From Methylobacterium organophilum (GTDB taxonomy: Bacteria; Pseudomonadota; Alphaproteobacteria; Rhizobiales; Beijerinckiaceae), in the NCBI RefSeq assembly GCF_022179465.1, contig NZ_BPQV01000005.1:62001-126000 (forward strand): a DNA stretch of 64,000 nt. Direction: 5' to 3'. The translations under genes and the position numbers were made by a program. Shown here in pieces: positions 1,686-62,026 of this stretch. The notes under the pieces are model-generated. The model saw only the letters and a list, made by a program, of their open reading frames with translations. It did no database searches and had not been told where the DNA came from. Numbering within the stretch: the stretch's first letter is position 1; each line of letters opens with the position of its first letter.

Positions 1686-1988
1686 TCAGGAGGAGAGGGC
1701 CGAGAGCACGTCACGGCCCTCGGGGCTCGCCGCGTAGCGCGTGCGCTGAGTGCGGGGGTCGCGGGTCGTCACCACGATGAGGGCTGCCCCGGTCAGGGTC
1801 TCCACCGCCCGCAGCACCAGGGCATGCTCCACCCCGAAGACCCGGGCGAAGCTGCGACTATCCGCGGAGAAGCCGAGGTGAAGCCCGGCCAGGATGCCAG
1901 CTTCGAGCAAGCTCAGTTCCGGGCGCAGGGCGGAGAGCGTCTCCGCCGCCGCCAGGAAGGTCTCCGCATCGGCGGGAGGCTCACTCAT
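1686..1988 (-). CDS. Small helical protein translationally coupled to formate dehydrogenase (Fdh4B candidate)
   Basis: 100 aa, soluble. It starts inside the end of the large molybdoenzyme gene, an ATGA overlap at 1985-1988, so the two are co-translated. The body (SLLEAGILAGLHLGF, SRSFARVFGVEHALVLRAVETL) followed by LIVVTTRDPRTQRTRYAASPEG looks like a winged-helix (MarR-like) fold with a beta-hairpin wing. In M. extorquens the fourth formate dehydrogenase is described as a large subunit, Fdh4A, plus a small Fdh4B. Position and pairing suggest this is Fdh4B, but I cannot verify the identity. It could instead be a small regulator or a maturation factor. Confidence 0.6.
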   Translation of the reverse strand: MSEPPADAETFLAAAETLSALRPELSLLEAGILAGLHLGFSADSRSFARVFGVEHALVLRAVETLTGAALIVVTTRDPRTQRTRYAASPEGRDVLSALSS

Positions 1989-42831: not shown

Positions 42832-44301
42832 TCAATAGCCCCGGGGCTTGGGCCAGGGCATCGTGAACTGGTCGCCCCGGCGGACATACTTGTAGCGGTG
42901 CAGCACGAACCAGGCGGAGGCGGTGATGTAGAAGGCCATCATCGCGACGAGCTGCGTGCCGTAGCCGAGGAAGACCGCGAGATAGGTCACCACGCAGAGC
43001 AGGAGCAGCAGGATCGCCGGCAGCGGGTGCAGCGGGTGCACGTAGCCGCGCTGGATCGAGCCCAGCGGCCATTTCCGGCGGAACAGCATGATCGAGAGCG
43101 CCATCAGCGTGTAGCCGAGCAGGCCCGACAGGATCGAGAAGGTGATGGTCTGGTCGAGCGGCGTCGAGACGGCGAACAGGATCGCGATCGGCACGAAGAA
43201 CACGATCGCGCGGTAGGGCGTGCGGTAGGTCGGGTGCACGGCGCCGAACCAGACCGGCATGTAGCGGTCTCGGCCCATGGCGAACCAGGCGCGGGAGGCG
43301 TCGTTGATGCAGCCATTGGCCGAGGCCACCGTGGCGAAGAGCGTGCCGAGGAAGAGGAAGGCCTCCAGCCAGCGGCTGCCGGTGAGCCGGGCCGCGTCGT
43401 AGAGCGGCGTCACCGCCTGGCCGAGATATTCCCAGGGCATCAGGCCGGTCGAGACGTACCAGGTCAGGGTCGCCGCGATCAGCAGGGTCATCATGCCGGT
43501 CATGGTGCCGAGCGGCAGGGCTCGGGCGGGGGAGCGCACTTCCTCCGCGGCCTGGGTCGTGCCCTCGATGCCGAGATAGAACCACAGGCCGAAATGCATG
43601 GCCGCGAGGATGCCGAGCGAGCCGTAGGGCAGATCGACGAGCAGCCCCTTGTGCTGGAGCACGGCGCCGGGCGCCCAGGGCTGGGACGCCACGAACAGCA
43701 CCACGATCGCGGCGAAGGCCGCCGCGGTGATGACGAGGTTCAGCGTCAGGGTGGCGAGCACGCCGCGATAGTTGAGGAAGGCCAGCGCCACCACGGTGAG
43801 CACCATGAAGGCGCGCTTGTCGATCGCGCCCTCCAGGCCGAGGCTCTGGGCGAAGGCCTCGATCAGGTCGCCGGCCACGATCGCGTTGGAGACCTCGAGC
43901 ATGGTGTAGGCCATGACGAGGTAGAGGCCGACATTGAAGGCCGCGAGCGGCCCGATGATGTGCTTGGCCTGGGCGTATTGCCCGCCCGCGGCGGCGACCG
44001 TCGAGGTGATCTCGGAATCGATCATCGCGACGCAGGTATAGAGGATGCCGGCGAGCCAGCAGGCGGCGAGGGCGGCCACGGGCCCGCCTTTGCCGACCGC
44101 GAAGTTCCAGCCCATGAACTCGCCGACGAGCACGATGCCGACGCCGAGCGCCCAGACATGGCCCGGCCCGAGCACCCGGAGCAGGGCGATCCGCGTGTCC
44201 GCCCCGGCGGCGGGCGCCGCGGCGGGGGCGCCCGCGAGGGGCACCGGCGCGGCGGGGGAGGGGGACAGGGAAGACGTGGGCAGGGATTGCGTCACGGGCA
44301 T
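42832..44301 (-). CDS. APC-superfamily amino-acid/amine permease
   Basis: 489 aa, 12 membrane helices. The APC consensus is seen in GIVLVGEFMGWNFAVGKGGP (helix 1 break), MIDSEITSTVAAAGGQYAQA, GIEGTTQAAEEVRSPARALP and FATVASANGCINDASRAWFA. It resembles ethanolamine or amino-acid permeases. The ATG at 44301 overlaps the stop of the preceding 56-aa gene (TGATG), so translation is coupled. It is one of two APC permeases in the window; the other (54470-56215) is only distantly similar. The substrate is unknown, and an amine is a reasonable guess. Confidence 0.88.
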   Translation of the reverse strand: MPVTQSLPTSSLSPSPAAPVPLAGAPAAAPAAGADTRIALLRVLGPGHVWALGVGIVLVGEFMGWNFAVGKGGPVAALAACWLAGILYTCVAMIDSEITSTVAAAGGQYAQAKHIIGPLAAFNVGLYLVMAYTMLEVSNAIVAGDLIEAFAQSLGLEGAIDKRAFMVLTVVALAFLNYRGVLATLTLNLVITAAAFAAIVVLFVASQPWAPGAVLQHKGLLVDLPYGSLGILAAMHFGLWFYLGIEGTTQAAEEVRSPARALPLGTMTGMMTLLIAATLTWYVSTGLMPWEYLGQAVTPLYDAARLTGSRWLEAFLFLGTLFATVASANGCINDASRAWFAMGRDRYMPVWFGAVHPTYRTPYRAIVFFVPIAILFAVSTPLDQTITFSILSGLLGYTLMALSIMLFRRKWPLGSIQRGYVHPLHPLPAILLLLLCVVTYLAVFLGYGTQLVAMMAFYITASAWFVLHRYKYVRRGDQFTMPWPKPRGY

Positions 44302-44471
44302 CACGACCTCGCTGCGGTTTCGCCGACCTCGGAATCCACGATCTCGCCCTCCTCCGAGGAGAGCAGGTAGGTCTCGTCATACGTTCGGTTGGTGCGCAGG
44401 AGATCGAACCCCATCCAGAGGGCGAGGACGGTCGCGAGCGCCCAGGCGCCCCAGTTCATGATGGCCACCAT
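44301..44471 (-). CDS. 56-residue single-pass membrane protein coupled to the permease
   Basis: 56 aa, starting at the ATG at 44471 with GGGGAAG six bases upstream. One transmembrane helix (NWGAWALATVLALWMGFDLL) is followed by a polar acidic tail (YDETYLLSSEEGEIVDSE). Its TGA overlaps the permease ATG. The strong ribosome-binding site, operon position and overlap argue that it is real. It could be a small subunit or stabiliser of the permease. Confidence 0.75.
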   Translation of the reverse strand: MVAIMNWGAWALATVLALWMGFDLLRTNRTYDETYLLSSEEGEIVDSEVGETAARS

Positions 44472-46554: not shown

Positions 46555-47541
46555 TTACTTGAAGAAATCCAGGATGCCGCCCGGCTCCGCATAGACGCCC
46601 GGGGCCGCGGTCGAGGCCTGCCAGGTGATGGTGCCGATGAAGGCCGAGCCGCACCAGCGAGAGGTGCCGCCGTTCAGGAAGCCGCGGTAATCGCCGGTGA
46701 AGGTGAAGCACTCGGACGGCGTCAGGTCGGTGTCGTGGTAGCGCACGTCGAGCAGCAGGTTCTTGTAGGCATAGGAGATGCCGACGTTGCCGTAGAGGTA
46801 GCTCGACAGGTTGACCGAGGGGAAGCGGCCGGTGACCGGGTTGAACGGGCCGGTCGCCGAGGTCCGCGCGGCGCCGAGGGTGAAGTAGCCGAGCTCGCCC
46901 GAGATCGAGAAGCCGCCGGCATAGGCCTCGGGCAGGAACGAGAACAGGGAGGCGGGCAGGGTGTAGGCCGCTGTGCCCGAGGCGTAGGTGCCGACCGCAT
47001 GCGTGCCGAAGAAGTTCGGCGTGTGGTAGACGTTCGCGCCGAGCACCAGGGCGTCCGTCGCCTGGTAGAGGACCTTGGCCGCCCCTTCGTAGAAGTCGGA
47101 ATTCGCCTGCGTGATCGGGAAGGGATTGTTGACGGCGTCGAAGCCGTAGATCCGCTTCTCGTTCGGGTAGAAGTAGTAGAGGATGCCGAGGTCGAAGGTG
47201 AACTTGTCCCAGGTCGGCCGGATGCCGGCCATCAGGTCGAACTCGAAGTCCGGCTGGGTCGGCAGGCGCGTCTGGAGCGTCGCGAAGGCCGTGTAGAAGA
47301 AGTTATTGAAGAAGTTGACCTCGAAATAGGTCTGATAGCTGCCCTGCAGATTGGACTGCGACACGCCGCGGAAATTGTAGTCCGTGGCGTAACGCGAGAA
47401 GAACGAGAAGCCGATCAGGTTGTCGGCCGCCTTCGCCTCGGCCGGCATCTCCTTCGGGGCGGCGAGATCGGCCGCCTCGGCCTGGGCGCAGAGAAGTGTC
47501 CCGGCCGCGACCAGAGCACGGGTGAAGGATTGTCTCTTCAT
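46555..47541 (-). CDS. TorF-family putative outer-membrane porin
   Basis: 328 aa. A signal peptide (KRQSFTRALVAAGTLLCAQA, cleaved near EAADL) precedes a beta-strand-rich mature protein: FSFFSRYATDYNFRGVSQSN is the opening signature of the TorF/Gcw_chp family. Alternating aromatic strands and a C-terminal TITWQASTAAPG complete it. Such porins were named from tor-linked outer-membrane proteins and probably pass small solutes. Adjacent amine-oxidation genes could suggest methylated amine or TMAO uptake, but this is inference. Confidence 0.85.
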   Translation of the reverse strand: MKRQSFTRALVAAGTLLCAQAEAADLAAPKEMPAEAKAADNLIGFSFFSRYATDYNFRGVSQSNLQGSYQTYFEVNFFNNFFYTAFATLQTRLPTQPDFEFDLMAGIRPTWDKFTFDLGILYYFYPNEKRIYGFDAVNNPFPITQANSDFYEGAAKVLYQATDALVLGANVYHTPNFFGTHAVGTYASGTAAYTLPASLFSFLPEAYAGGFSISGELGYFTLGAARTSATGPFNPVTGRFPSVNLSSYLYGNVGISYAYKNLLLDVRYHDTDLTPSECFTFTGDYRGFLNGGTSRWCGSAFIGTITWQASTAAPGVYAEPGGILDFFK

Positions 47542-47853: not shown

Positions 47854-50229
47854 TCAGGCGGGGATGCCCGCCGTCGCCACCGTGTCGGCGGCCGAGGCCG
47901 GGGGCGGCGGGGGCGCGGCCGTGTCCGCCTCGGCCCGCACCCGGGTCTTCTTGGGGTCGTAATGCGGGAAGGGCACGACGGTCGCCGCGAGCCGCTTCTG
48001 GTGGCCGTCGAGCTTGCCGATCTCCACCGCCGTCCCGTCCTCCGCGGCACTGACGTCGAGCCGGGCGAGGGCGATGGTCTTGCGCAGGATCGGCGACTTC
48101 AGGGCGCTGGTGATCACGCCGACCTGCCCGCGCCCGACATAGACCGGGTCGCCATGGCCGACCGCCTCGTTGCCGGCGACGTCGAGGCCGACGAGGCGGC
48201 GATGCGGCGCCGCCCGGCGGCGCTCCAGGGCCTCCTTGCCGATATAGGGATCGGCCTTCGCCGTCGCCACGGCGAAGCCAATGCCCGCCTCGAACGGGTC
48301 GGTCTGGTCGCAGAACTCGTAATCCGCGAAGACGAGGCCCGCCTCGATGCGCAGCATGTCGAGGGCGGCGAGGCCCGCCGGGGTGAGGCCGTGCGGCGCC
48401 CCCGCCTCCATGATCGCGTCCCAGACCGCGACCGCCTGGGAGGGATGGCACCAGACCTCGTAGCCGAGCTCGCCGGTATAGCCCGTGCGCGAGACCACCA
48501 CCGGCACGCCGGCGAGGCGGCCGACGGTGAAGCGGAACCATTTCAGCTCCGACAGGCTCGGCTGATGCGGCGGCGTCACCAGGAGGGGCGCGAGGATGCC
48601 CCGGGCCCGGGGCCCCTGGACGGAGAGGTTGTGGAGCTGGTCGGTCGATTCCTTGACCCAGACCTTGAAGCCGTTCCGCTCGGCGAGCTGGCGCAGCCAC
48701 AGGCCGCAATACTCGTCGCCGCAAATCCAGCGGAAGTTGGTCGGGCCGAGACGGAACAGCGTGCCGTCGTCGATCATGCCGCCATGTTCGTAGCACATCG
48801 CCGCATAGACGATCTGGCCGACCGCGAGCTTGCGCACGTCGCGGGTGAGCGCGAGCTGCATCAGCGCCTCGGCATCCGGGCCGATCACCTCGAACTTGCG
48901 CAGGGCCGAGAGGTCCAGCACCACCGCGCGCTCGCGGCAAGCCCAGTATTCGGCGATCGGTCCGGCAGAGGAGAAGCAGCTCTGCAGCCAGAAGCCGCGA
49001 TAATCCTCCATCTTGCGGGTGAGGGACGAGGTACGGGGGTGGAAACCCGTCTCGCGGGTCAGGCGCGGCTCGGAATCGGGCGTCATGCGGTGGCTCATCC
49101 CACGGGGAAAGGCACAGGCGGCGTCGTAGACGCGCACATGGATGTCGGTCGGGAACCAGCCATTGGCCGGGTCGATGTCGTCGGCGCAGGAGGAGGCGGC
49201 GCAGACGAGATCGGTCAGCGCTCGCAGGAGCACGTAGTCGCCCGGCCGCGACCAGGGCTCGTCCATGTCGATCCGGTCGTTCGCGCCGGGAATCGTGTTG
49301 TAGAAGAAGTTGATCGCCGGCCAGCCCTTGCGCGACGCGATGCCGTGCGGCGCCAGCACCGCGTTGAAATTGTCGGTGCAGTTGGAATGGCCGGGATAGC
49401 CCATGTCTTCATAGTATTTCGCCGAGCAGGCGAGCATGAAGGTGTCGTGGCGCCCGACCGTGTCCTGCACCACCTCGACGAGGGGCACCATCCGCGCGTC
49501 GAAATACTTGGCGTGCAGGCCCGGCTTCGGCGAGGACGTGCCCATCAGCGTATGCGTCGTGGTGGCGTCGAGCCCGCATTCGCGGCCCTGCGCCAGTTCG
49601 GCGGCATCGAAGGCCAGGAAGTCGGCGCATTGGCGCCCGTCCACGTCGATGATCTGGATGTATTGTCCGGCCTTCACCGTGAAGGCGCGGGCCGTCGCCG
49701 CGTCGACGCGCAGATCCTGCAGCGGCGGGGCGAGGGGAGGGGGCGCCTGCCCGACGATCGAGGCGGCGGGCCGGATCACCAGCCGCAGCTCGGTCGGCGG
49801 ATTCTGCGCCTCGGGCGCCATCGGCGCGCCCGGGGCGACCAGAACGCAGAACGAGGCTTGCGCGGCGACGCCCTCCCAGGCGGCGCCGGCCGCATGCTCC
49901 CCGTCGAGGATCACGAGACCGGCGAGGTCCGAGGGACCGATCCCGCCCGCGTCCAGGGCGGACCGCGCCGCCGCGGCCGCGCCGAGGCCGTCCTCGAGCA
50001 GGGCGGCGAGCGCCGGCGGCGGCCCGGCCGATCCCGCCTCGAAGGTGCCGGGCAGGGCGTAGAGCAGCCCCCCCTGCAGCCCCTCCGGGTCGACGACGCG
50101 TAAGGCGTCACCGGCCGAGACCGCGAAGACGCAGCACCGGCCCCCCGGCACACGGATCGAGCGCTCCCGGGGCGGCAGCGTCGCGCCGCCCCCCGGCTGC
50201 AGGGCAGGCTGAAACCAGATCTGGTTCAT
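47854..50229 (-). CDS. tdm: Trimethylamine N-oxide demethylase (DUF1989-GcvT fusion)
   Basis: 791 aa, near the length of Methylocella Tdm. The N-terminal ~385 residues are a tandem DUF1989-type region: a degenerate first repeat (VPGGRCCVFAVSAGDALRVV) and a full second repeat (VKAGQYIQIIDVDGRQCADF; GRHDTFMLACS; HSNCTDNF; AASSCADDID) that supply metal-binding Cys, His and Asp. From about 400 to 760 is a GcvT-like folate-binding domain (SRTGYTGELGYEVWC, then RIEAGLVFADYEF). Tdm converts TMAO to dimethylamine and formaldehyde, the folate domain accepting the C1 unit. It starts 44 bp after tmm, which makes its substrate. Confidence 0.88.
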   Translation of the reverse strand: MNQIWFQPALQPGGGATLPPRERSIRVPGGRCCVFAVSAGDALRVVDPEGLQGGLLYALPGTFEAGSAGPPPALAALLEDGLGAAAAARSALDAGGIGPSDLAGLVILDGEHAAGAAWEGVAAQASFCVLVAPGAPMAPEAQNPPTELRLVIRPAASIVGQAPPPLAPPLQDLRVDAATARAFTVKAGQYIQIIDVDGRQCADFLAFDAAELAQGRECGLDATTTHTLMGTSSPKPGLHAKYFDARMVPLVEVVQDTVGRHDTFMLACSAKYYEDMGYPGHSNCTDNFNAVLAPHGIASRKGWPAINFFYNTIPGANDRIDMDEPWSRPGDYVLLRALTDLVCAASSCADDIDPANGWFPTDIHVRVYDAACAFPRGMSHRMTPDSEPRLTRETGFHPRTSSLTRKMEDYRGFWLQSCFSSAGPIAEYWACRERAVVLDLSALRKFEVIGPDAEALMQLALTRDVRKLAVGQIVYAAMCYEHGGMIDDGTLFRLGPTNFRWICGDEYCGLWLRQLAERNGFKVWVKESTDQLHNLSVQGPRARGILAPLLVTPPHQPSLSELKWFRFTVGRLAGVPVVVSRTGYTGELGYEVWCHPSQAVAVWDAIMEAGAPHGLTPAGLAALDMLRIEAGLVFADYEFCDQTDPFEAGIGFAVATAKADPYIGKEALERRRAAPHRRLVGLDVAGNEAVGHGDPVYVGRGQVGVITSALKSPILRKTIALARLDVSAAEDGTAVEIGKLDGHQKRLAATVVPFPHYDPKKTRVRAEADTAAPPPPPASAADTVATAGIPA

Positions 50230-50273
50230 GGCATCCCTCGTTCCTCGGGATCGGTTCGCGGACGGGACCGGGC

Positions 50274-52795
<2,522 letters not shown>

Positions 52796-53173
52796 GTCGT
52801 CTGCCCCTTCTCTCGCGGAGGTGGTCTCGACCGGACACGGGGGATTGGCCCGCGCAGCGTCGGGTCATCAGGCGGCCGGCACGCGGCCCGGCTGATGAAG
52901 GGCCGCCGGGCGTGCCGGCCGGCGAGGGGATTGCGCCCTCCTCGCCGGACATCTTTCTTGTCGGGAAAATTTTTAGACCTCGCCGGAACGGCGGAGCAAT
53001 GGTGACTGTTGGCACCATCGGCCCGGCCCGGGGGCGGAGATCATCGCGACAGGAGGGGAAAGCACGGTCCCCGCACGATCCTTGCCTACGGAAGATCCTT
53101 GCGTCCGGCGCCGTCAGCACAGAAAGTTGTTCGGTCGGCGACAATCAGGACGTGCGAATAGAGGCCTTTTCCC
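52796..53173. other. Divergent intergenic region between the tmm operon and the LuxR gene
   Basis: 378 bp. It should hold both promoters. I found no copy of the TTCTC-N3-GAGAA motif here and no open frame with a good start. Confidence 0.5.
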
Positions 53174-54301
53174 TTGCTGCCTTCGCCTTCCGCGACGTTC
53201 GGCTTCGAGCCCGATGACAAGCCTCGGCGGATCGCCCCCCGCGTGAGCGAGGCTCCGCGCAGCGTCGACCCCGTCCGGCTGACCGACGGCGAATGGTTCG
53301 CGCAGCTCGGCGAGGTCGCCGCCTCGATCGGGACGGACAGCTTCCATCGCAAGTTGCTGCATCTGGCCGGGCTCTGCATCCGGCACGATTCGAGCTGGAT
53401 CATCCGCTATTCGCGGGTCGCGCCCCCCGACGTGCTCTACACCGCGGGCGTGCCGGACGAGATCGTCGCCTTCTACGACGAGAAGGGGCAGTATCTCGAT
53501 CCATTCTCCGCCCGCTGGCGCCGCACGGGGCAGCCGGGGGTGCTCACCCTCTCGGAGATCGCCGCGGAGGGCCCGGAAGCGATTCTCTACAAGCAGATCT
53601 TCACACCGACGGCCAAGATCGCCGATGAGATCGGGATGTTCTTCTCCACCGTCGGGCATTGCTGCTTCGGCCTGTTCCTGGAGCGCGAGCGGGGCAGCTT
53701 CTCGAAGGCGGATATCGAGCGGGCCAAGCTGATCTTCCCGGCGCTGGAGGGCTATCACCGCAGCCATCTCGGGCAGCTCTTCAACCACCTGCGCTACACG
53801 AGCGGGGCGGCCAGCGGCGGCCTCGTCAGCCGCCCGACCCTGATCCGCGACCGGCACGCCGTGGAGGTGTTCTCGAACGCCTCCTGGCGCGAGGCGGTGG
53901 CGGCGGATGCCTCGATCCTGCCCCTGATCGCCGCCTTCGGCAGCGCGGAGGGCCTGACGACGCTGCAGGGGCGGGACTACGTCCTGAAGACCGAGCCCTT
54001 CGACCGAGACTTCCCCCTGGCGCCCGGCGGCCGGATCTTCACCCTGGAGGCCCGCGCCGCGGCGCAGGAGGATTCGGTGGATTACCGGGCCGCCGCCCAG
54101 ATCCTGCAGGCGCTCACCCCGCGGGAGCGCGACATCCTCAGCCTGACGATGAAGGGGCAGGCCACGGGGCAGATCGCGCAGGCCCTGGCGATCAGCAAGG
54201 GCACGATCAAGAACTGCAAGCTGCGCATCTACCGCAAAGCCGAGGTCTCCTCGGAGCGCGACCTCGTGAAGAAGTTCAGCCCGTTCTTCCCCTCGACCTG
54301 A
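53174..54301 (+). CDS. LuxR-type HTH transcriptional regulator of the methylated-amine cluster
   Basis: 375 aa from a TTG at 53174; the true start is uncertain, with an in-frame GTG 23 codons later. The C-terminal LuxR HTH is clear (LTPRERDILSLTMKGQATGQ, then IAQALAISKGTIKNCKLRIY). The N-terminal ~300 residues are a helical/alpha-beta sensor region (FAQLGEVAASIGTDSFHRKL; HCCFGLFLERERGSFSKADI) without a recognisable response-regulator or autoinducer domain. It sits between the tmm operon and the permease/dmm genes, so it likely controls one or both. Confidence 0.85.
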   Translation: MLPSPSATFGFEPDDKPRRIAPRVSEAPRSVDPVRLTDGEWFAQLGEVAASIGTDSFHRKLLHLAGLCIRHDSSWIIRYSRVAPPDVLYTAGVPDEIVAFYDEKGQYLDPFSARWRRTGQPGVLTLSEIAAEGPEAILYKQIFTPTAKIADEIGMFFSTVGHCCFGLFLERERGSFSKADIERAKLIFPALEGYHRSHLGQLFNHLRYTSGAASGGLVSRPTLIRDRHAVEVFSNASWREAVAADASILPLIAAFGSAEGLTTLQGRDYVLKTEPFDRDFPLAPGGRIFTLEARAAAQEDSVDYRAAAQILQALTPRERDILSLTMKGQATGQIAQALAISKGTIKNCKLRIYRKAEVSSERDLVKKFSPFFPST

Positions 54302-54415
54302 TTCCCGCGGCCTGAGCGGTCGGGCGCGTCGGTGCCGGGGCGCCCCTCGCCCCGCAGGCCGGGAGAGGGGGAGGCTTCCCGCGCCGTCTTCCGGCCGCCC
54401 CGCCTGACAAAGCAC

Positions 54416-54446
54416 AAAAACCCGGCGCGGGTGTCCCCGCGCCGGG
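54416..54446 (-). terminator. Rho-independent terminator of the second permease gene
   Basis: CCCGGCGCGG and CCGCGCCGGG form a perfect 10-bp stem (54421-54430 with 54437-54446) and a 6-nt loop. On the minus strand TTTTTGTGC follows. It lies 24 bp past the permease stop. Confidence 0.88.
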
Positions 54447-54469
54447 CCGTTCTCGGGATCAAGCCGGTC

Positions 54470-56215
54470 TCAGAGCGTGAAGAACCAGTTCGAGATCAGC
54501 AGCACCGCCACGCCGGCGACGAGGGTGAGGTAGGGCAGGATCCCGGCCCGCTTGGCGCTGACGGCGCCCTCCGGACCGACATGAAGGTCCTCGAAGGTCT
54601 CGTGCGGGAACTTGCCGCCGTCCTGCACATAGTGGCGGAACAGGAAGACCGGGATGATCAGGGCCGCGGTGATCAGCCCCGCCCAGAGGGCGACCGGGTT
54701 CCACACCTTCGCGCCCGCGCCCATGAAGACCACGTTCACGAAGGCGAAGAGGCCGCCCAGCACCAGCACGAAGGTCGGCGCCCGGTAGGGACGCGGCACG
54801 CGGGCCGAGTCGATGCGGTGGATCCAGGCCGCGTTCAGGTTGAGGAAGTTGAAGATGATGTAGCCGCAATTCGACACGGCGAGGATGAAGAAGAAGCTCG
54901 TCGCGTCGGCGCAGGCGATCGCCAGCACCAGCAGGTTCACGCCGAGATCGGTCCACATCGCCGCCGTCGGGGCGCCGTGCGCATTGGCATGGCTGAGATA
55001 GCGCGGCAGCCAGCCATCGACCGAGCCCTGGTAGAGCGTGCGCGAGGAGCCGGCCATCGCGGTCATGATGCACAGGATCAGGGCGAGGATCATCAGCATC
55101 ACCAGGACGCTCTCGATCACCGGGCCGCCGCCGACCATGTGGGCGAGGGCCGCCGCGACGCCCGAGCCGTCGACCACGGAGGGCTCCAGCATGCCCTCGA
55201 CGCCGAGCATGCTCTGGAAGGTGAAGGGCACCAGGGTGAACAAAGCGAGGCAGAGCAGGCCCGAATAGAAGATCGCCTTGAAGGTGTCGCGGCTCGGATC
55301 CTTGAACTCGCTGGTGTAGCAGATCGCAGTCTCGAAGCCGTAGGTCGACCAGGCGGCGATGAACATGCCGCCCAGCACCAGCGTCCAGCCGGTGATGTTC
55401 CAGGCGCCGGGCTCCGGCGCGGCGGGGGCGGCGAGCGGCACCAGCGGCGTGAAGTTGCCCCAGTTCACCCCGTGCAGGAGCAGGGGCACCACGCCGACGA
55501 TGAACATCGGCACGATGACGAGCAGGCCGATCCACTTCTGCACGTTGGCCGTGCCGAGGATGCCCCGGTGCTGCACGGCGAAGACCGCGAGCATCAGCAC
55601 CGCGCCGATGAAGAAGGCGGCGTTGAGCGAGAACGAGACCGGCCCGAGGGCGGTCGAGAACAGGGTCCAGGTCCGCAAGGTCGGCGAGACTGCCGCCACC
55701 GCCGCGGCGAGCTTTTCCGCCTCCGTGCCCTGGAGGGCGGCGCCGTGGGCGGCGAGCCACTGCACCACGGCCGGCGAGGTCGCCGTGGGCGCCGGCGCGA
55801 GCGCGTTGATGATGTAGGAGGCGGCGATCGAGCAGCCGAGGGAGAGCACCGGGCTCCAGGCGAACCAGTTGCACCAGACCGAGAGCGGCGCGATCAGCTT
55901 CGAGTAGCGCACCCAGGCGGCCGCGCCATAGACCGAGGCGCCGCCGGACTTGTTCGGGAACAGGCCCGCGATCTCGGCGTAGCTGAAGGACTGGATGAAG
56001 CCCATCAGCATGGACAGCGTCCAGATCACGAAGGCGAGCTTGCCGGTATTGCCGGCGATGCCGCCCACCGAGAACAGCACCAGGGCCGGCACGCCGCTCG
56101 CGACCCAGAAGGCGCCCGTCCAGTTGATGCTGCGGTGAAGCTGGCCCTGGTCCACGCCGGTGGCGATGGGGACGGCCGGCGAGACCGGCGTCGTCGAACT
56201 GATTCCGACACTCAT
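54470..56215 (-). CDS. APC-superfamily permease of the methylated-amine cluster
   Basis: 581 aa, 12 or more membrane helices, with GGGAGA before the ATG at 56215. Features are WTGAFWVASGVPALVLFSVG, SYAEIAGLFPNKSGGASVYG, then STYGFETAICYTSEFKDPSR and MTAMAGSSRTLYQGSVDGWL. The loop after helix 4 (PAVVQWLAAHGAALQGTEAE) is unusually long. Between the LuxR gene and dmmA, it may import trimethylamine, TMAO or dimethylamine, although an amino-acid substrate cannot be excluded. It is divergent from dmmA. Confidence 0.85.
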   Translation of the reverse strand: MSVGISSTTPVSPAVPIATGVDQGQLHRSINWTGAFWVASGVPALVLFSVGGIAGNTGKLAFVIWTLSMLMGFIQSFSYAEIAGLFPNKSGGASVYGAAAWVRYSKLIAPLSVWCNWFAWSPVLSLGCSIAASYIINALAPAPTATSPAVVQWLAAHGAALQGTEAEKLAAAVAAVSPTLRTWTLFSTALGPVSFSLNAAFFIGAVLMLAVFAVQHRGILGTANVQKWIGLLVIVPMFIVGVVPLLLHGVNWGNFTPLVPLAAPAAPEPGAWNITGWTLVLGGMFIAAWSTYGFETAICYTSEFKDPSRDTFKAIFYSGLLCLALFTLVPFTFQSMLGVEGMLEPSVVDGSGVAAALAHMVGGGPVIESVLVMLMILALILCIMTAMAGSSRTLYQGSVDGWLPRYLSHANAHGAPTAAMWTDLGVNLLVLAIACADATSFFFILAVSNCGYIIFNFLNLNAAWIHRIDSARVPRPYRAPTFVLVLGGLFAFVNVVFMGAGAKVWNPVALWAGLITAALIIPVFLFRHYVQDGGKFPHETFEDLHVGPEGAVSAKRAGILPYLTLVAGVAVLLISNWFFTL

Positions 56216-56560
56216 CGTGAGATCTCCCAAACAGGATTTGCGGGGTGATGCCGTTCGATTCGGGAAAACAAAGATCCGAATCCGCTCATTCGAGATCACG
56301 CGGCCGGTTCGGCCACGGAAAAACAGGCACATCGCGTCCGTCCGCGGAACGCGGCGGGACGTCATTCCTGTCTCGTCTCCGCCTTCAGGCGGTTGTGCTA
56401 TGGAGATTCGATCGCATGGGGCCGCTTCACTTCGTATTGGCTGCTGAGCATGGCTCAGAATCGAAGATCGACGAGATATCGCCTCAGACAGAGACAATCC
56501 GTGCGTCGGCGGCCCTTCATTCCGGACGCTCGGACCGCGACGGGGCGCATCCCGCCTCGG

Positions 56561-56573
56561 TTCTCGATGAGAA
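56561..56573. promoter_or_regulatory. TTCTC-GAT-GAGAA palindrome, copy 1
   Basis: Perfect 5-3-5 palindrome, 346 bp upstream of the permease start. The same motif recurs twice near dmmA. Confidence 0.55.
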
Positions 56574-56645
56574 TATTCATTTCCCTGGGGGGATGGGCTG
56601 TCAAGCAGAATCCTGCTCGCCAAACCGGCAATGCTCGAATTATGC

Positions 56646-56661
56646 CGTGATTTTGATCACA
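56646..56661. promoter_or_regulatory. CRP/FNR-superfamily-like site
   Basis: CGTGA-TTTTGA-TCACA matches the CRP consensus TGTGA-N6-TCACA except for the first base, and its core TGAT-N4-ATCA also fits FNR/FixK sites. It lies 354 bp before dmmA and 431 bp before the permease gene. Confidence 0.5.
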
Positions 56662-56885
56662 ATGAAGAATTTTAGTGCATTATGCCCGTCAAGCGGGCGC
56701 TCTGCGGCGGGAGCGTGGCACCGAGTCATGCCCGGCATCGTGGGCCGGCGCGCCGGCGAATCCGGCCGACTTTGAGATTTCCCCTTTTTCATCAGGATGT
56801 TGGCGACGCCCGCGAGCGAGGCCGCCGCAACGGGGGAGATTCGCCACGTCCTCCAGATCCCGCACACGCCCCGATTGACAATGTT

Positions 56886-56920
56886 ATTCTTGATGAGAAA
56901 GTATCGTTCTCATCGAGAAT
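56886..56920. promoter_or_regulatory. Paired TTCTC-N3-GAGAA motifs upstream of dmmA
   Basis: ATTCTTGATGAGAA (56886-56899), 7-nt spacer, TTCTCATCGAGAAT (56907-56920): a 14-base inverted repeat with one mismatch. Each arm is itself the short palindrome found at 56561. It lies 94 bp before the dmmA start, a plausible activator site. Confidence 0.65.
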
Positions 56921-57014
56921 TCGGCCTGCGGGACGCGACAGGATCCGCCCGAGGCCCGCCCAAGCTCCGGCGCCGATGCCGGGCCGATGCACACCCTTTC
57001 CTCCCGAGGTGACG

Positions 57015-57584
57015 ATGACCGATCAGGGCATCAAGAGCCGACCGATCTATGCCGCCCTGCGCCGCGACTCGTCCGGGCGGCGCCATCTCTACGTCTCCGC
57101 CGGATCGGAGCCGCCGCCTCCCGCCCTGGCGGACGGTCCCCTCGAGAGCTGGACCGTCGCGCCGGCGAGCGCGGAGGGCACCCTCGAACGCCCGCAGGGG
57201 GAGGGGGAGCGCCGCTTCCGCTCCGCCCGCCAGCTCATGGAGACCCTGGGCCGGCGCCTCGCCTCCGAACGGATGGGCCTGCGCCTCTATGCCGAGGGCC
57301 CGGAGGATTTCCTCTGGGACGTGTTCGGGATCGCCCAGGCCCATGGCCTCGGCCGGCAGGAGGTCTTCCTGAAGCAGTCCGGCACCCTGGCCCGCCGGGT
57401 CCAGTGCGTCCATTGCAAGACCTTCAACGAGGGCGTCACCACCACGATCGTGCGCTGCGCCGGCTGCGGCGCGAATCTGTTCGTACGCGACCACTTCTCG
57501 CGCCGGCTCTCGGCCTTCCAGGGCGTCAAGGTCGACGCGGAGCAACCGGGCGACGTCCCGCAGGCGGAACGGGCCTATCCATGA
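57015..57584 (+). CDS. dmmA: Dimethylamine monooxygenase subunit DmmA-like protein
   Basis: 189 aa. The start at 57015 follows GAGGTGACG. The N-terminal part (SRPIYAALRRDSSGRRHLYV; RQLMETLGRRLASERMGLRL; DVFGIAQAHGLGRQEVFLKQ) is not a known enzyme fold. The C-terminus is a zinc ribbon, C-x2-C (CVHC) and C-x2-C (CAGC), ending in LFVRDHFSRRLSAFQGVK. The layout fits DmmA-family proteins found with dimethylamine monooxygenase. Its stop overlaps the next start by four bases. Letter assignments differ between reports. Confidence 0.75.
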   Translation: MTDQGIKSRPIYAALRRDSSGRRHLYVSAGSEPPPPALADGPLESWTVAPASAEGTLERPQGEGERRFRSARQLMETLGRRLASERMGLRLYAEGPEDFLWDVFGIAQAHGLGRQEVFLKQSGTLARRVQCVHCKTFNEGVTTTIVRCAGCGANLFVRDHFSRRLSAFQGVKVDAEQPGDVPQAERAYP

Positions 57585-58525
57585 TCCTCGACGGCACCCT
57601 CCCGGCCCGCGTGGCCGGCATCGAGTCCTTGAGCCCGACCCTGAAGCGCTTCCGCTTCGAGCCGGAGCGGGGATCCTTCCCGACCGCCGCGCCGGGGGCG
57701 CATATCCTCGTGACCCTGCGCGGGCCCGAGCGCGTCTGGAAGAACGCCTATTCCCTGGTCACGCCGCCGGAGGCGCGCGACGCCTACGCGATCATCGTGC
57801 GCCGGGTGGAGGCGTCGCGGGGCGGCTCGCATTTCCTGCACGACCATCTTCGCATTGGCGACCGCGTCGAGATCGGGGCGCCGGCGAGCCTGTTCCCCAT
57901 CGCCAGCCTGGCCCGCCGCCACATCCTGATCGGCGGCGGCATCGGGCTCACGCCTTTCCTGTCCTTCCTGCCGGTCCTGCGCGCCCGGGGCGCGGCCTTC
58001 GAGCTGCATCAATACTGCACCGACGCGGAGACGGAGACCTTCGGGCAGCTGCTCGCGGAAGCGGGCGGCGCCGTCACCATCCATGGCAGCGCCTCCCGGC
58101 GCTCGGTCGCCGAGATCCTCGCCGACCAGCCGCTGGGCACGCATGTCTATACCTGCGGCCCGGAGCGCCTGATGGCAGCGGTCGAGCAGGCGGCGCTCGA
58201 TCTCGGCTGGCCGAGCCATTCCATCCACAAGGAGAGCTTCGGCGGGGCCGAGGGCGGCAAGCCCTTCACCGTCAGGCTCGCCCGCTCGGGGCGCAGCATC
58301 GCCGTCTCCGAGACGCAGAGCCTGCTCGAAGCCCTGGAGGCGGCGGGGGTCGAGGCGCCCTGCCTGTGCCGCGGCGGCGCCTGCGGCGTCTGCCTCACGG
58401 GCGTGATCGACGGCGCGGTGGAGCATCGCGACCACGTCCTCACCGAGGCGGAGCGGGCCGACGGCAAGCTGATCGCGACCTGTGTGTCACGGGCCCGCTC
58501 CGACGCGCTCGTGCTCGACCTGTAA
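57581..58525 (+). CDS. PDR/VanB-type reductase of the dimethylamine demethylase
   Basis: 314 aa. The FMN/FAD-binding ferredoxin-reductase domain has AYSLVTPPEARDAY (FMN-binding RxYS-type), NAD-binding LIGGGIGLTPFLSF and YTCGPERLM. The C-terminal plant-type 2Fe-2S domain has CLCRGGACGVC plus a later Cys in IATCVS. It passes electrons from NAD(P)H to the haem subunit encoded next. It is translationally coupled to dmmA (ATGA) and 18 bp before the DUF3445 gene. Confidence 0.9.
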   Translation: MILDGTLPARVAGIESLSPTLKRFRFEPERGSFPTAAPGAHILVTLRGPERVWKNAYSLVTPPEARDAYAIIVRRVEASRGGSHFLHDHLRIGDRVEIGAPASLFPIASLARRHILIGGGIGLTPFLSFLPVLRARGAAFELHQYCTDAETETFGQLLAEAGGAVTIHGSASRRSVAEILADQPLGTHVYTCGPERLMAAVEQAALDLGWPSHSIHKESFGGAEGGKPFTVRLARSGRSIAVSETQSLLEALEAAGVEAPCLCRGGACGVCLTGVIDGAVEHRDHVLTEAERADGKLIATCVSRARSDALVLDL

Positions 58526-58543
58526 GATCAAGGAGGGACCCCG

Positions 58544-59608
58544 ATGGGCATTCAGTTCCGCAAGGACGAGCGGTTCCGCGAGAGCTTCTCCTACGTCAAC
58601 AGCGACGCGGGCGTACTGCGCTTTCCCTTCCCGTTCGGGGAGGACCGCTACATGTACTCGGTCAATATCGAGCCCCATACCCGCGGCGGCCCGACCCCGG
58701 CCTTCGCCCACCCCTTCGACATCGACGAGCATTACATCGCCGAGTGCCAGGAGCGCGCCCTGGTGCTCGCCGACGATCCCGGCCGCTGCCAGGTGCTGCC
58801 GCACATGATGCCGGCGCAATGGGACACGCTCGAACTGCTGATGGAGAGCCTCGCGGCGGACTATCCCGAGCATTTCAGCTTGGAGAAGGACGGCGACACC
58901 TGGCGCTGGATCAACCGGCCCCTCGGCATCGATCAGAGCTTCGTCTTCGGCAAGCCGGAGACGCTGCCCTGCGAGCCCTTCGAATACATCACCCGCCAGG
59001 CCCAGGGCGACTTCACCCTGCAGGATCAGCGCGACGACAATCTCTTCGTCGATGGCGGCATGGTGACGACCCAGGCCGACTGGTCCCTCGATTTCGACAT
59101 CGGCATGTCCTTCCACGAATGGCACGGGCCGGTGCCGCTCGCCCACGACATCGGCGTGTTCGACCGGGCGCTGCGCTTCCTGCTGCGCCTGCAATACGGC
59201 CATCCGGTCCGGCGCCTGAACTGGACCATGACCATCAATCCCCGCCTCGACACCTCGCCGGAGAACTATCCCGATTGGGGGCCGGACCGGACCACGGTGA
59301 CGCCGGAGAACGTCGCTGAGAAGGTGCATCTGCGGGTCGAATTGCAGACCCTGTTCCGGCTGCCGCGCTCCAACGCGATCCTGTTCGGCATCCGCTGCTA
59401 CCTGCTCAGCCTCAAGGACATCGAGCGCGTGGAGAAGTGGCGCAAGCGCCTGAACCGGGTGCTGACGACGCTGCCGCCCGAGCTCGCGGAGTACAAGGGC
59501 CTCACCCGCTACCGCGAGACCATCCTCGCGCGCCTCGCGCCGCAGGACGACGGGGCCGAGCTCTCGCTCGGCATCCAGCCGGACCAGACGGTCCTGCCGC
59601 CGGCCTGA
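58544..59608 (+). CDS. Haem-dependent oxidative N-demethylase alpha subunit (DUF3445)
   Basis: 354 aa; AAGGAGGG lies before the ATG. The DUF3445 family is the catalytic haem-PAS subunit of HODM, the oxygen-dependent dimethylamine demethylase described from Pseudomonas mendocina. Family features are FPFGEDRYMYSVNIEPHT, FSLEKDGDTWRWINRPLG, MVTTQADWSLDFDIGMSFHE, HRVELQTLFRLPRSNAI (positions ~262-280, first residue Leu) and LLSLKDI. It oxidises dimethylamine to monomethylamine and formaldehyde with electrons from the preceding reductase. The conserved WSLDFDIGMSFHEWHGPVP segment should contact the haem. Confidence 0.9.
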   Translation: MGIQFRKDERFRESFSYVNSDAGVLRFPFPFGEDRYMYSVNIEPHTRGGPTPAFAHPFDIDEHYIAECQERALVLADDPGRCQVLPHMMPAQWDTLELLMESLAADYPEHFSLEKDGDTWRWINRPLGIDQSFVFGKPETLPCEPFEYITRQAQGDFTLQDQRDDNLFVDGGMVTTQADWSLDFDIGMSFHEWHGPVPLAHDIGVFDRALRFLLRLQYGHPVRRLNWTMTINPRLDTSPENYPDWGPDRTTVTPENVAEKVHLRVELQTLFRLPRSNAILFGIRCYLLSLKDIERVEKWRKRLNRVLTTLPPELAEYKGLTRYRETILARLAPQDDGAELSLGIQPDQTVLPPA

Positions 59609-60575: not shown

Positions 60576-61388
60576 ATGTCCCGGACAGAGGCGACGATCG
60601 CCGAGAACCGCCGGCGCTACGAGGCCCTGAAGCAGGCGGCCCAGGGCCACACGGCGCGGACCCTGCCGCCGCCGAGCCCGCGCGGGGCGCCCCCGCTCGC
60701 GGCGGAGGCGGTGATCCACCGCGAGGTCATCCCCGGCGGCTGGTACTGGGCCACGCCGCTGAAGGCCGGCGAGGGCCTGCGGATCGCCCTGGAGGAAGGG
60801 CCGTCCAGCGTCGCCCTGGTGGCCTGGAGCGCGCGGGATCCCAGCGAGCGCCTGAACTACGCCGACACGGTCAAGATCCAGTGGACCGCGGCCCTGGGCA
60901 AGGGCCGGGTCCTGTTCTCGGACATGGGCCGGGTGATGCTCTCCCTGATCGAGGATTCCTGCGGCGCCCACGACGCCCTGACCGGCGGCTCCACCGCCGC
61001 CTCGAACGCGGGGCGCTATCCCGGCGGGCCGCACCGCAACACCCGCGACAACCTCCTGCTCGCCGCCCTGAAGCACGGGCTCGACCGGCGCGACCTGCCC
61101 CCCTGCCTCTCCTTCTTCGCCCCCGTTCAGGTGGGCGCGGAGGGCCGCTTCGCCTGGAACGCCGCCGGCCGCCGCGGGGGCGACTTCGTCGACCTGCGCG
61201 CCGAGATGGACCTCCTCGTCGCCCTGTCGAACTGCCCCCATCCCCTCGATCCGGCCCCGGACTACGCCCCCCCTCCCGTCGCGGCGACGCGCTTCCGCGC
61301 CCCCGCGCCGCAGGCGGACGATCTCTGCCGCACCGCCACCCTCGAGGCCGTGCGCGGCTTCGAGAACAACGCCGCCGCGTGCCTGTGA
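60576..61388 (+). CDS. DUF1989 protein, carboxyguanidine deiminase subunit (UAAP1 type)
   Basis: 270 aa; GAAGGAGA lies before the ATG. The DUF1989 core is GWYWATPLKAGEGLRIALEE, NYADTVKIQWTAALGKGRVL, IEDSCGAHDALTGGST and LSNCPHPLDP, with metal-binding Cys and His residues. Formerly named urea-amidolyase-associated protein 1, it is one of two DUF1989 subunits (CgdA/CgdB) that deiminate carboxyguanidine to allophanate in guanidine use. It is the first gene after the riboswitch; no transporter genes intervene. Confidence 0.88.
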   Translation: MSRTEATIAENRRRYEALKQAAQGHTARTLPPPSPRGAPPLAAEAVIHREVIPGGWYWATPLKAGEGLRIALEEGPSSVALVAWSARDPSERLNYADTVKIQWTAALGKGRVLFSDMGRVMLSLIEDSCGAHDALTGGSTAASNAGRYPGGPHRNTRDNLLLAALKHGLDRRDLPPCLSFFAPVQVGAEGRFAWNAAGRRGGDFVDLRAEMDLLVALSNCPHPLDPAPDYAPPPVAATRFRAPAPQADDLCRTATLEAVRGFENNAAACL

Positions 61389-61399
61389 GGGAGGCCCCC

Positions 61400-62026
61400 A
61401 TGACCGAGACCAGCACCGGCGCCATCCTGCGCGACGAACTTGTGCCCGCCGAGGCGCCCTGGTCGGGCCTCGTGCGCCGCGGCCAGACCCTGCGCATCAC
61501 CGATAGCGAGGGCTGCCAGGCCGTCGACACCCTGTTCTACCGGGCCGACGACATGGGCGAGCGCTACTCCGCGCAGGACACCCTGCGGATGCAGGGCTCC
61601 GCCTACGTCACCACCGGCACGCGGGTGATCTCCAACGAGGGCCGGGTGATGCTGACGGTGACCGCCGACAGCTGCGGCCGCCACGACACCTCCGCCGGCG
61701 CCTGCTCCTGCGAGAGCAACACGGTGCGCTTCGGCCACGCGACCAAGTACCTGCATGCCTGCCGCGAGAACTTCGCCCTGGAGGTCGCGAAATACGGCCT
61801 GTCGAAGCGCGACATCGTGCCGAACATCAACTTCTTCATGAACGTGCCGATCGAGCAGGACGGCACGCTCGCCATCGCCGACGGCGTCTCGAAGCCGGGC
61901 GACCATGTCGAGCTGCGGGCGGAGATGGACGTGATCTGCGTGATCTCGAACTGCCCGCAGATCAACAATCCCTGCAACGGCTTCAACCCGACGCCGATCC
62001 GCGTGACCATCCGGGACGGGGCCTGA
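61400..62026 (+). CDS. DUF1989 protein, carboxyguanidine deiminase subunit (UAAP2 type)
   Basis: 208 aa. The DUF1989 core is RGQTLRITDSEGCQAVDTLF, MLTVTADSCGRHDTSAGACS with a Cys-rich metal site, and VISNCPQINNPCNGFNPTPI. It starts 11 bp after the UAAP1-type gene and 5 bp before the carboxylase. It forms the heterodimeric deiminase with the previous gene product. Paralogous to that protein and to the N-terminal half of Tdm in this window. Confidence 0.88.
   Translation: MTETSTGAILRDELVPAEAPWSGLVRRGQTLRITDSEGCQAVDTLFYRADDMGERYSAQDTLRMQGSAYVTTGTRVISNEGRVMLTVTADSCGRHDTSAGACSCESNTVRFGHATKYLHACRENFALEVAKYGLSKRDIVPNINFFMNVPIEQDGTLAIADGVSKPGDHVELRAEMDVICVISNCPQINNPCNGFNPTPIRVTIRDGA

What the first reader, a model, noticed from the sequence alone, without database searches (positions are those of the whole stretch)
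47854..59608. Complete oxygen-dependent trimethylamine-to-methylamine pathway in one 12-kb locus
Seen: tmm, a DUF1989-GcvT fusion of Tdm size, a separate GcvT-like gene, a LuxR regulator, an APC permease, and a DmmA / reductase / DUF3445 operon. Known families: Tmm (TMA to TMAO), Tdm (TMAO to DMA plus formaldehyde), HODM/Dmm (DMA to MMA plus formaldehyde). Inference: the cluster supplies formaldehyde and MMA nitrogen; two GcvT-fold proteins would capture the C1 units on folate, with the formate dehydrogenase at 2-4 kb serving the last step. No NMG/GMA methylamine genes are in the window.
Basis: partly seen in the sequence, partly recalled or inferred. Interest (0 to 1): 0.72.

Follow-up and report, generated by a model that had tools for sequence, protein, structure and literature searches.

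The report
Trimethylamine pathway with unreported LuxR regulator
A Methylobacterium-type bacterium carries the already known gene set that strips methyl groups from trimethylamine, and beside it sits a LuxR-type regulator with a conserved palindromic DNA site that looks like the switch for this pathway in several groups of land and plant bacteria.

The parts
47854..50229 (-). tdm, trimethylamine N-oxide demethylase (DUF1989 + GcvT fusion, 791 aa)
   Evidence: NF053776 1268 bits (cut-off 1100); PDB 9q59 over residues 18-766; metal residues conserved
50274..51629 (-). tmm, trimethylamine monooxygenase (451 aa)
   Evidence: NF058570 835 bits (cut-off 675); PDB 8b2d, 2xve, 6kbw, 5ipy
51665..52795 (-). 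DmmD-like stand-alone GcvT-fold protein (376 aa), first gene of a probable dmmD-tmm-tdm operon (gaps 35 and 44 bp)
   Evidence: GCV_T + GCV_T_C; below the curated cut-off of the GcvT models it hits; same neighbours in Methylocella tundrae
52964..52978 (-). A/T-rich block about 20 bp from the palindrome towards dmmD, possible -10 region (inferred)
   Evidence: flanks of 17 palindromes printed; clear in the Methylorubrum/Methylobacterium rows, not clear in the others; judged by eye
52999..53018 (.). palindrome ATGGTG-ACTGTTGG-CACCAT, candidate operator in the dmmD/luxR divergent intergenic region
   Evidence: the extended pattern has only this match at <=2 mismatches in the own genome
53243..54301 (+). 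LuxR-family regulator (352 aa from GTG at 53243; alternative TTG start 53174): VqsR-like sensor domain, middle domain, GerE helix-turn-helix
54470..56215 (-). tmoP, TMAO permease family (APC superfamily, 581 aa)
   Evidence: NF053774 872 bits (cut-off 690)
57015..57584 (+). dmmA, dimethylamine monooxygenase subunit (189 aa)
   Evidence: PF22289, PF22290, NF041259 above cut-off
57581..58525 (+). dmmB, flavin/[2Fe-2S] reductase subunit (314 aa), overlaps dmmA by 4 bp
   Evidence: Fer2, FAD_binding_6
58544..59608 (+). dmmC, haem-dependent oxidative N-demethylase-type subunit (354 aa)
   Evidence: PF11927 241 bits; PDB 5lte 483 bits; only PF11927 hit in the genome
46555..47541 (-). TorF-like putative outer-membrane porin downstream of tdm, a possible accessory part of the locus
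   Evidence: PF09694 above cut-off; TIGR02001 below cut-off (40 of 47 bits); beside tdm also in L079-L081

Best explanation
The locus is a soil-methylotroph trimethylamine catabolic cluster of the Methylocella silvestris type. TmoP imports TMAO; Tmm oxidises TMA to TMAO with O2 and NADPH; Tdm splits TMAO into DMA and formaldehyde; DmmABC oxidises DMA to methylamine and formaldehyde with O2 (reactions from established knowledge of the families). The DmmD-like protein probably helps handle formaldehyde. Methylamine is then probably used through GMA synthetase and NMG synthase candidates encoded elsewhere in the genome, and formaldehyde mainly through Fae. The cluster is controlled by the LuxR-type protein between the dmmD-tmm-tdm operon and tmoP. 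Its VqsR-like domain binds a small amine-derived ligand (most likely DMA or TMAO), and its GerE domain, as a dimer, binds the 20-bp palindrome ATRGTGCC-N4-GGCACYAT and activates the divergent dmmD-tmm-tdm promoter. Enzyme identities rest on curated families. The regulator-operator pairing rests on comparative genomics. Ligand, binding and activation are inferred.
Against: No experiment. Only one good site exists in the own genome, so tmoP and dmmABC either have weaker sites or other control. 8 of 18 tmm-bearing genomes of the family sample lack a close LuxR, so it is not universal. Of 10 plasmid-borne distant relatives scanned, 7 have no <=2-mismatch site. Two distant relatives in other families (L141, L142) have neither amine genes nor a site. 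The consensus was derived from most of the loci counted, the genomes are related, so the Fisher value is not a true probability, and open frames overlap several sites.
Confidence: 0.72

Rival explanations
1. The palindrome is bound by some other regulator, for example a general nitrogen or carbon regulator, and the LuxR gene acts elsewhere.
For: No binding data; the own genome has only one site while the cluster has at least two divergent intergenic regions.
Against: The site tends to follow the LuxR, not the enzymes: 0 of 8 tmm clusters without a close LuxR have it inside the cluster, while some LuxR relatives in non-TMA settings do (L040 three sites, L042 one). A general regulator would be expected to have many sites per genome, not one (inference).
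Confidence: 0.15
2. Ordinary reading: a known TMA cluster with a LuxR passenger such as an orphan quorum-sensing receptor, no special link.
For: The sensor fold resembles AHL receptors and VqsR; orphan LuxR genes are common in general (recalled).
Against: 13 of 14 family genomes keep it beside amine genes, and 24 of 26 named loci have one within the flank, despite changes in gene order; no Pfam match other than helix-turn-helix/sigma models and chance-level hits in 12 members.
Confidence: 0.12
3. The enzymes mainly serve other N-methyl compounds (for example DMA released from dimethylformamide), with TMA a side substrate.
For: On pLVM1 of Methylobacterium sp. DM1, a strain with a dimethylformamidase (PMC11381386, passage), related LuxR genes sit with tmoP, dmmABC, a dmmD-like gene and mau genes but without tmm/tdm in the 31 kb read; a formamidase lies beyond the window.
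Against: tmm and tdm pass equivalog cut-offs and form a close operon with the dmmD-like gene here.
Confidence: 0.12

Closest known systems
Methylocella silvestris TMA cluster (dmmD = Msil_3605, dmmABC = Msil_3607-3609, PMC5520151; tdm, tmm and permease numbers only by recall)
   Same: Same set tdm, tmm, dmmD, TMAO permease, dmmABC; the names of NF053776 and NF053774 carry 'Msil'
   Different: The LuxR and palindrome are not mentioned in the passages read; the original 2014 paper was not held. A relative, Methylocella tundrae, has both (L089)
Ruegeria pomeroyi TMA cluster with TmaR and TmoR (PMC13390433)
   Same: Same three enzymatic steps; a dedicated transcriptional regulator
   Different: TmoR is GntR family; the TmaR tree uses AraC as outgroup. 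The regulator here is LuxR/GerE family with a VqsR-like sensor; the GmaS candidate is not in the cluster
DmfR of Paracoccus aminophilus plasmid pAMI2 (PMC4543880, passages)
   Same: LuxR-family activator of an N-methyl compound pathway (dimethylformamide)
Pseudomonas aeruginosa VqsR (PDB 5xhx)
   Different: Host and, as far as known, target genes; the model here also has a middle domain (199-270), not covered by 5xhx

Membership tests
Trimethylamine monooxygenase (Tmm) | passes the curated equivalog model | tested here: met
   NF058570 835 bits vs 675
Trimethylamine monooxygenase (Tmm) | N-oxygenates TMA | not testable with these tools
   needs enzyme assay
TMAO demethylase (Tdm) | DUF1989-GcvT fusion passing the equivalog model | tested here: met
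   NF053776 1268 vs 1100
TMAO demethylase (Tdm) | Zn/Fe residues of M. silvestris Tdm | tested here: met
   C263, H276, C279, C343, D346, D198 correspond to 268, 281, 284, 348, 351, 203
Dimethylamine monooxygenase (DmmABC) | three adjacent subunit genes: DmmA, flavin/2Fe-2S reductase, PF11927 subunit | tested here: met
   dmmA/dmmB overlap
Dimethylamine monooxygenase (DmmABC) | converts DMA to MMA | not testable with these tools
   needs an expression assay as done for R. pomeroyi (PMC5520151)
TMAO permease (TmoP) | passes the curated equivalog model | tested here: met
   NF053774 872 vs 690
Folate-dependent GcvT aminomethyltransferase (stand-alone gene) | passes a GcvT model cut-off and keeps the folate-contact Arg (E. 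coli R223) | tested here: not met
   below cut-offs; Leu at that position in Tdm and in the stand-alone protein
Formate dehydrogenase (gene 1985-4294) | passes the FDH-alpha equivalog | tested here: not met
   TIGR01591 209 bits vs 666; TIGR01701 FdhF/YdeP 931 vs 582
AHL quorum-sensing LuxR receptor | autoinducer-binding domain recognised by Pfam (domain name recalled) | tested here: not met
   no such match in 12 of 12 members at E<=1; the fold is related and no ligand was tested
VqsR-like LuxR regulator | VqsR-like ligand-binding fold plus C-terminal GerE domain | tested here: met
VqsR-like LuxR regulator | orphan, no partner luxI gene | not tested
   no luxI search of the genome was made
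DmfR family | sequence kinship with DmfR of pAMI2 | not tested
   record GQ410978 not in the collections; paper not held
TmaR / TmoR regulators | TmoR: GntR family; TmaR: AraC type by its outgroup (PMC13390433) | tested here: not met
   the only DNA-binding family above its Pfam cut-off is GerE/LuxR

The most novel reading that the evidence does not exclude
A VqsR-fold LuxR regulator family, read out by one palindrome (ATRGTGMC-N4-GKCACYAT), is a widespread alphaproteobacterial sensor of small amines and amides. In Methylobacteriaceae, Beijerinckiaceae and Acetobacteraceae it is the dedicated switch for TMA-to-methylamine catabolism, separate from the marine TmaR/TmoR system, and elsewhere it controls other amine or amidase operons with the same operator.
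Probability: 0.5. Interest if true: 0.6.

Novelty: new variant of a known kind. Interest (0 to 1): 0.42.

Why it matters
In the papers I could search, control of TMA breakdown is worked out only in a marine Roseobacter (TmaR, TmoR); for soil and plant methylotrophs with the same enzymes I found no regulator described. A regulator with a one-site genome-wide operator gives a direct, cheap test, and would yield a methylated-amine-responsive genetic switch. It would also show that a LuxR protein with a quorum-sensing-like fold can be a metabolic sensor rather than a cell-density receptor.

Tried and rejected
Formate dehydrogenase in the window: rejected. Methylamine dehydrogenase: no mauA in the own genome, with a positive control on plasmid pLVM1 (the first try had no working control). 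Type III GS just beyond the window (L031/L036): near formamidase and urea carboxylase, so not taken as the methylamine enzyme; the copy on contig C3 follows three glutamate-synthase-like genes in the order of mgsABC (the mgs reading is by domain and recalled gene order, no NMG-specific model was hit). Contig C8 has soxB and soxA genes above cut-off and a soxG-like gene below it (soxD not checked), next to a GbdR-like regulator gene below cut-off; whether they are NMG dehydrogenase or sarcosine oxidase was left open. A second palindrome in the tmoP-dmmA interval was not followed. Kinship with DmfR could not be tested. The search for VqsR's own DNA site gave only a listing that was not read further. 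The site in G223 lies inside a transporter gene and was taken as chance. The second permease at 42832-44304 is not assigned. The source organism is inferred from nearest relatives, not given.

Not in print: searches of the held open-access library showed no LuxR regulator of tmm/tdm/dmm in their listings or in the passages read; the key 2014 paper on M. silvestris was not held, so prior mention cannot be excluded.
Full report
What is there. Nine genes between 46.5 and 59.6 kb are open without internal stops. Reading left to right: a TorF-like porin, tdm, tmm and a stand-alone GcvT-fold gene on the minus strand, a LuxR gene on the plus strand, a TMAO permease gene on the minus strand, and dmmA-dmmB-dmmC on the plus strand. 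The minus-strand genes dmmD-like, tmm and tdm are separated by 35 and 44 bp, so they probably form one operon with the GcvT-like gene first. Curated models confirm Tdm, Tmm and the permease above their equivalog cut-offs, and DmmA and DmmC above family cut-offs. Solved relatives are Tdm (9q59), Tmm-type FMOs (8b2d, 6kbw, 5ipy) and the haem N-demethylase (5lte). The Tdm metal residues discussed in PMC12560246 (passages read) are conserved at a constant offset.

What is known already. PMC5520151 (first fifth of the text and passages read; [quoted passage not shown] The names of the NCBI models for Tdm and the permease carry 'Msil'.

Corrections. The gene at 2-4 kb is a FdhF/YdeP-type oxidoreductase, not a recognised formate dehydrogenase. 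The stand-alone GcvT-fold protein and the Tdm C-terminal domain both have Leu where E. coli GcvT has its folate-contact Arg, so capture of formaldehyde on folate is a hypothesis. PMC5520151 does argue for a folate role of DmmD, and its dmmD disruption in R. pomeroyi abolished growth on TMA, TMAO and DMA, though dmmD alone did not complement it. The genome has three Fae homologues, no mauA by a search with a working positive control, a type III GS gene behind three glutamate-synthase-like genes on contig C3, read here as gmaS and mgsABC candidates, and soxB/soxA genes on contig C8 that may belong to NMG dehydrogenase or sarcosine oxidase. Tdm is described as O2-independent in the title of Zhu et al. 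2016 (seen only in a reference list).

The regulator. The LuxR protein was searched in 298 genomes of the same family: 14 have a relative at E<=1e-10. Thirteen of them, at 42% identity or more, lie beside tmm, tdm, dmmD, tmoP or dmmABC; the fourteenth (about 31%) does not. tmm itself is in 18 of the 298: 10 with the close LuxR, 8 without (one of these 8 has the distant relative elsewhere); 3 genomes have the LuxR with dmmD-like and tmoP genes but no tmm. Within the genus, 7 of 25 genomes have tmm and all 7 have the LuxR, while none of the other 18 has either. In named genomes 28 loci were returned; two match only in the helix-turn-helix and were dropped. Of the 26 left, 24 have at least one methylated-amine gene within the fetched flank: Methylorubrum/Methylobacterium, Methylocella tundrae, Xanthobacter, Methylovirgula, another Beijerinckiaceae bin, Acetobacter and Nguyenibacter. 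Two of the 24 are weak cases: L097 has only a 51%-identical permease about 4.5 kb away, and L098 a tdm fragment about 8 kb away. The remaining two are on contigs of 6.1 and 3.8 kb. On plasmid pLVM1 of Methylobacterium sp. DM1 two tandem LuxR genes adjoin tmoP, dmmABC, a dmmD-like gene and the mau cluster. In a sample of 385 genomes of the class only 4 have a relative at E<=1e-25, two of them in the genus and two in other families without amine genes nearby. A maximum-likelihood tree holds 27 rows together with support 100/98, 26 from amine loci and one (L096) from a short contig, apart from the other 8 rows; several branches are long, so joins are unsure.

The operator. The interval between luxR and the divergent gene holds a palindrome, ATGGTG-ACTGTTGG-CACCAT, at 52999-53018, 203 bp from the dmmD start and 224 bp from the luxR GTG. 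Across the loci it reads ATRGTGCC-N4-GGCACYAT, with some paired changes in the two arms (ATGGTG/CACCAT against ATAGTG/CACTAC, the last base unpaired). It lies between luxR and dmmD in the Methylorubrum type of the window, between luxR and tmm in most other Methylobacterium, between luxR and tmoP in Methylocella, between luxR and tdm in three Acetobacter, and before tmm, tmoP, tdm or dmmA in others. 21 of 26 named loci have it at <=2 mismatches and 24 at <=3, outside the mapped genes, though open frames, some of them 5' extensions of neighbours, overlap several sites. L092 has a 4-mismatch copy before tmoP; L093 has only 4-mismatch matches elsewhere. Five Markov shuffles of the 64-kb window gave 0 matches at <=2, 1 at 3 and 19 at 4. 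Because the consensus came from these loci, three further tests were made. First, a scan of the 298 whole genomes with the extended pattern CAATRGTGNCNNTTGGCACYAT found <=1 mismatch in 11 genomes: 10 of the 13 luxR-bearing ones, each at the luxR locus, and one other inside a transporter gene. At <=2 mismatches 35 of 298 genomes match: 13 of 13 luxR-bearing and 22 of 285 others, against 8 genomes for the reversed control pattern, so that looser threshold is noisy. The own genome has one match at <=2. The Fisher value (2e-15) ignores relatedness. Second, none of 8 tmm clusters without a close LuxR has a <=2-mismatch site inside the cluster; one locus (L071) has such a site about 6 kb away. Third, ten distant plasmid-borne relatives not used for the consensus were scanned: 3 have a <=2-mismatch site (Mesorhizobium with three copies, Salipiger and Sulfitobacter with one each), 7 do not. 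The palindrome therefore tends to follow the regulator rather than the enzymes. An A/T-rich block lies about 20 bp from the palindrome on the dmmD/tmm side in the Methylorubrum/Methylobacterium rows (by eye), which would fit an activator site just upstream of a promoter; this is inference.

Verdict. The added value is a candidate regulator-operator pair for TMA catabolism in non-marine Alphaproteobacteria, well supported by comparative genomics, untested at the bench, and not found in the open-access papers searched.

Noticed in passing
window 60576-62026 and L036: UAAP1/UAAP2 DUF1989 pair leading, past the window end, into urea carboxylase, a type III glutamine synthetase, an amidase-like gene (by eye), formamidase FmdA and an ABC transporter (by eye): an amide/urea nitrogen island beside the amine cluster. 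The DUF1989 half of Tdm is related to UAAP2.
   Followed up: partly
window 1985-4294: FdhF/YdeP-type molybdopterin oxidoreductase that can be mistaken for a formate dehydrogenase.
   Followed up: yes
window 46555-47541: TorF-like porin beside tdm, also in L079-L081; possible outer-membrane route for TMA/TMAO.
   Followed up: partly
L039 (plasmid pLVM1) 13859-15996: Two tandem LuxR relatives (36% and 39% identical to the window's) next to tmoP-dmmABC-dmmD and the mau cluster on a plasmid typed as conjugative.
   Followed up: partly
L040 9155, 12450, 12557: Three copies of the palindrome (1 mismatch each) near SDR, BetI and NAD(P)-binding oxidoreductase genes on a Mesorhizobium plasmid, with a 32%-identical LuxR and no annotated TMA genes in the stretch.
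   Followed up: partly
window 56892-56914 (in the tmoP-dmmA interval): A different perfect inverted repeat, GATGAGAA-N7-TTCTCATC, upstream of dmmA; possible site of a second regulator.
   Followed up: no
L072, L073, L075, L076: Two kinds of DmmD-like GcvT gene exist: one in dmmDABC order (38-40% identical to the window's) and the permease- or tmm-linked kind seen here (60-96%).
   Followed up: no
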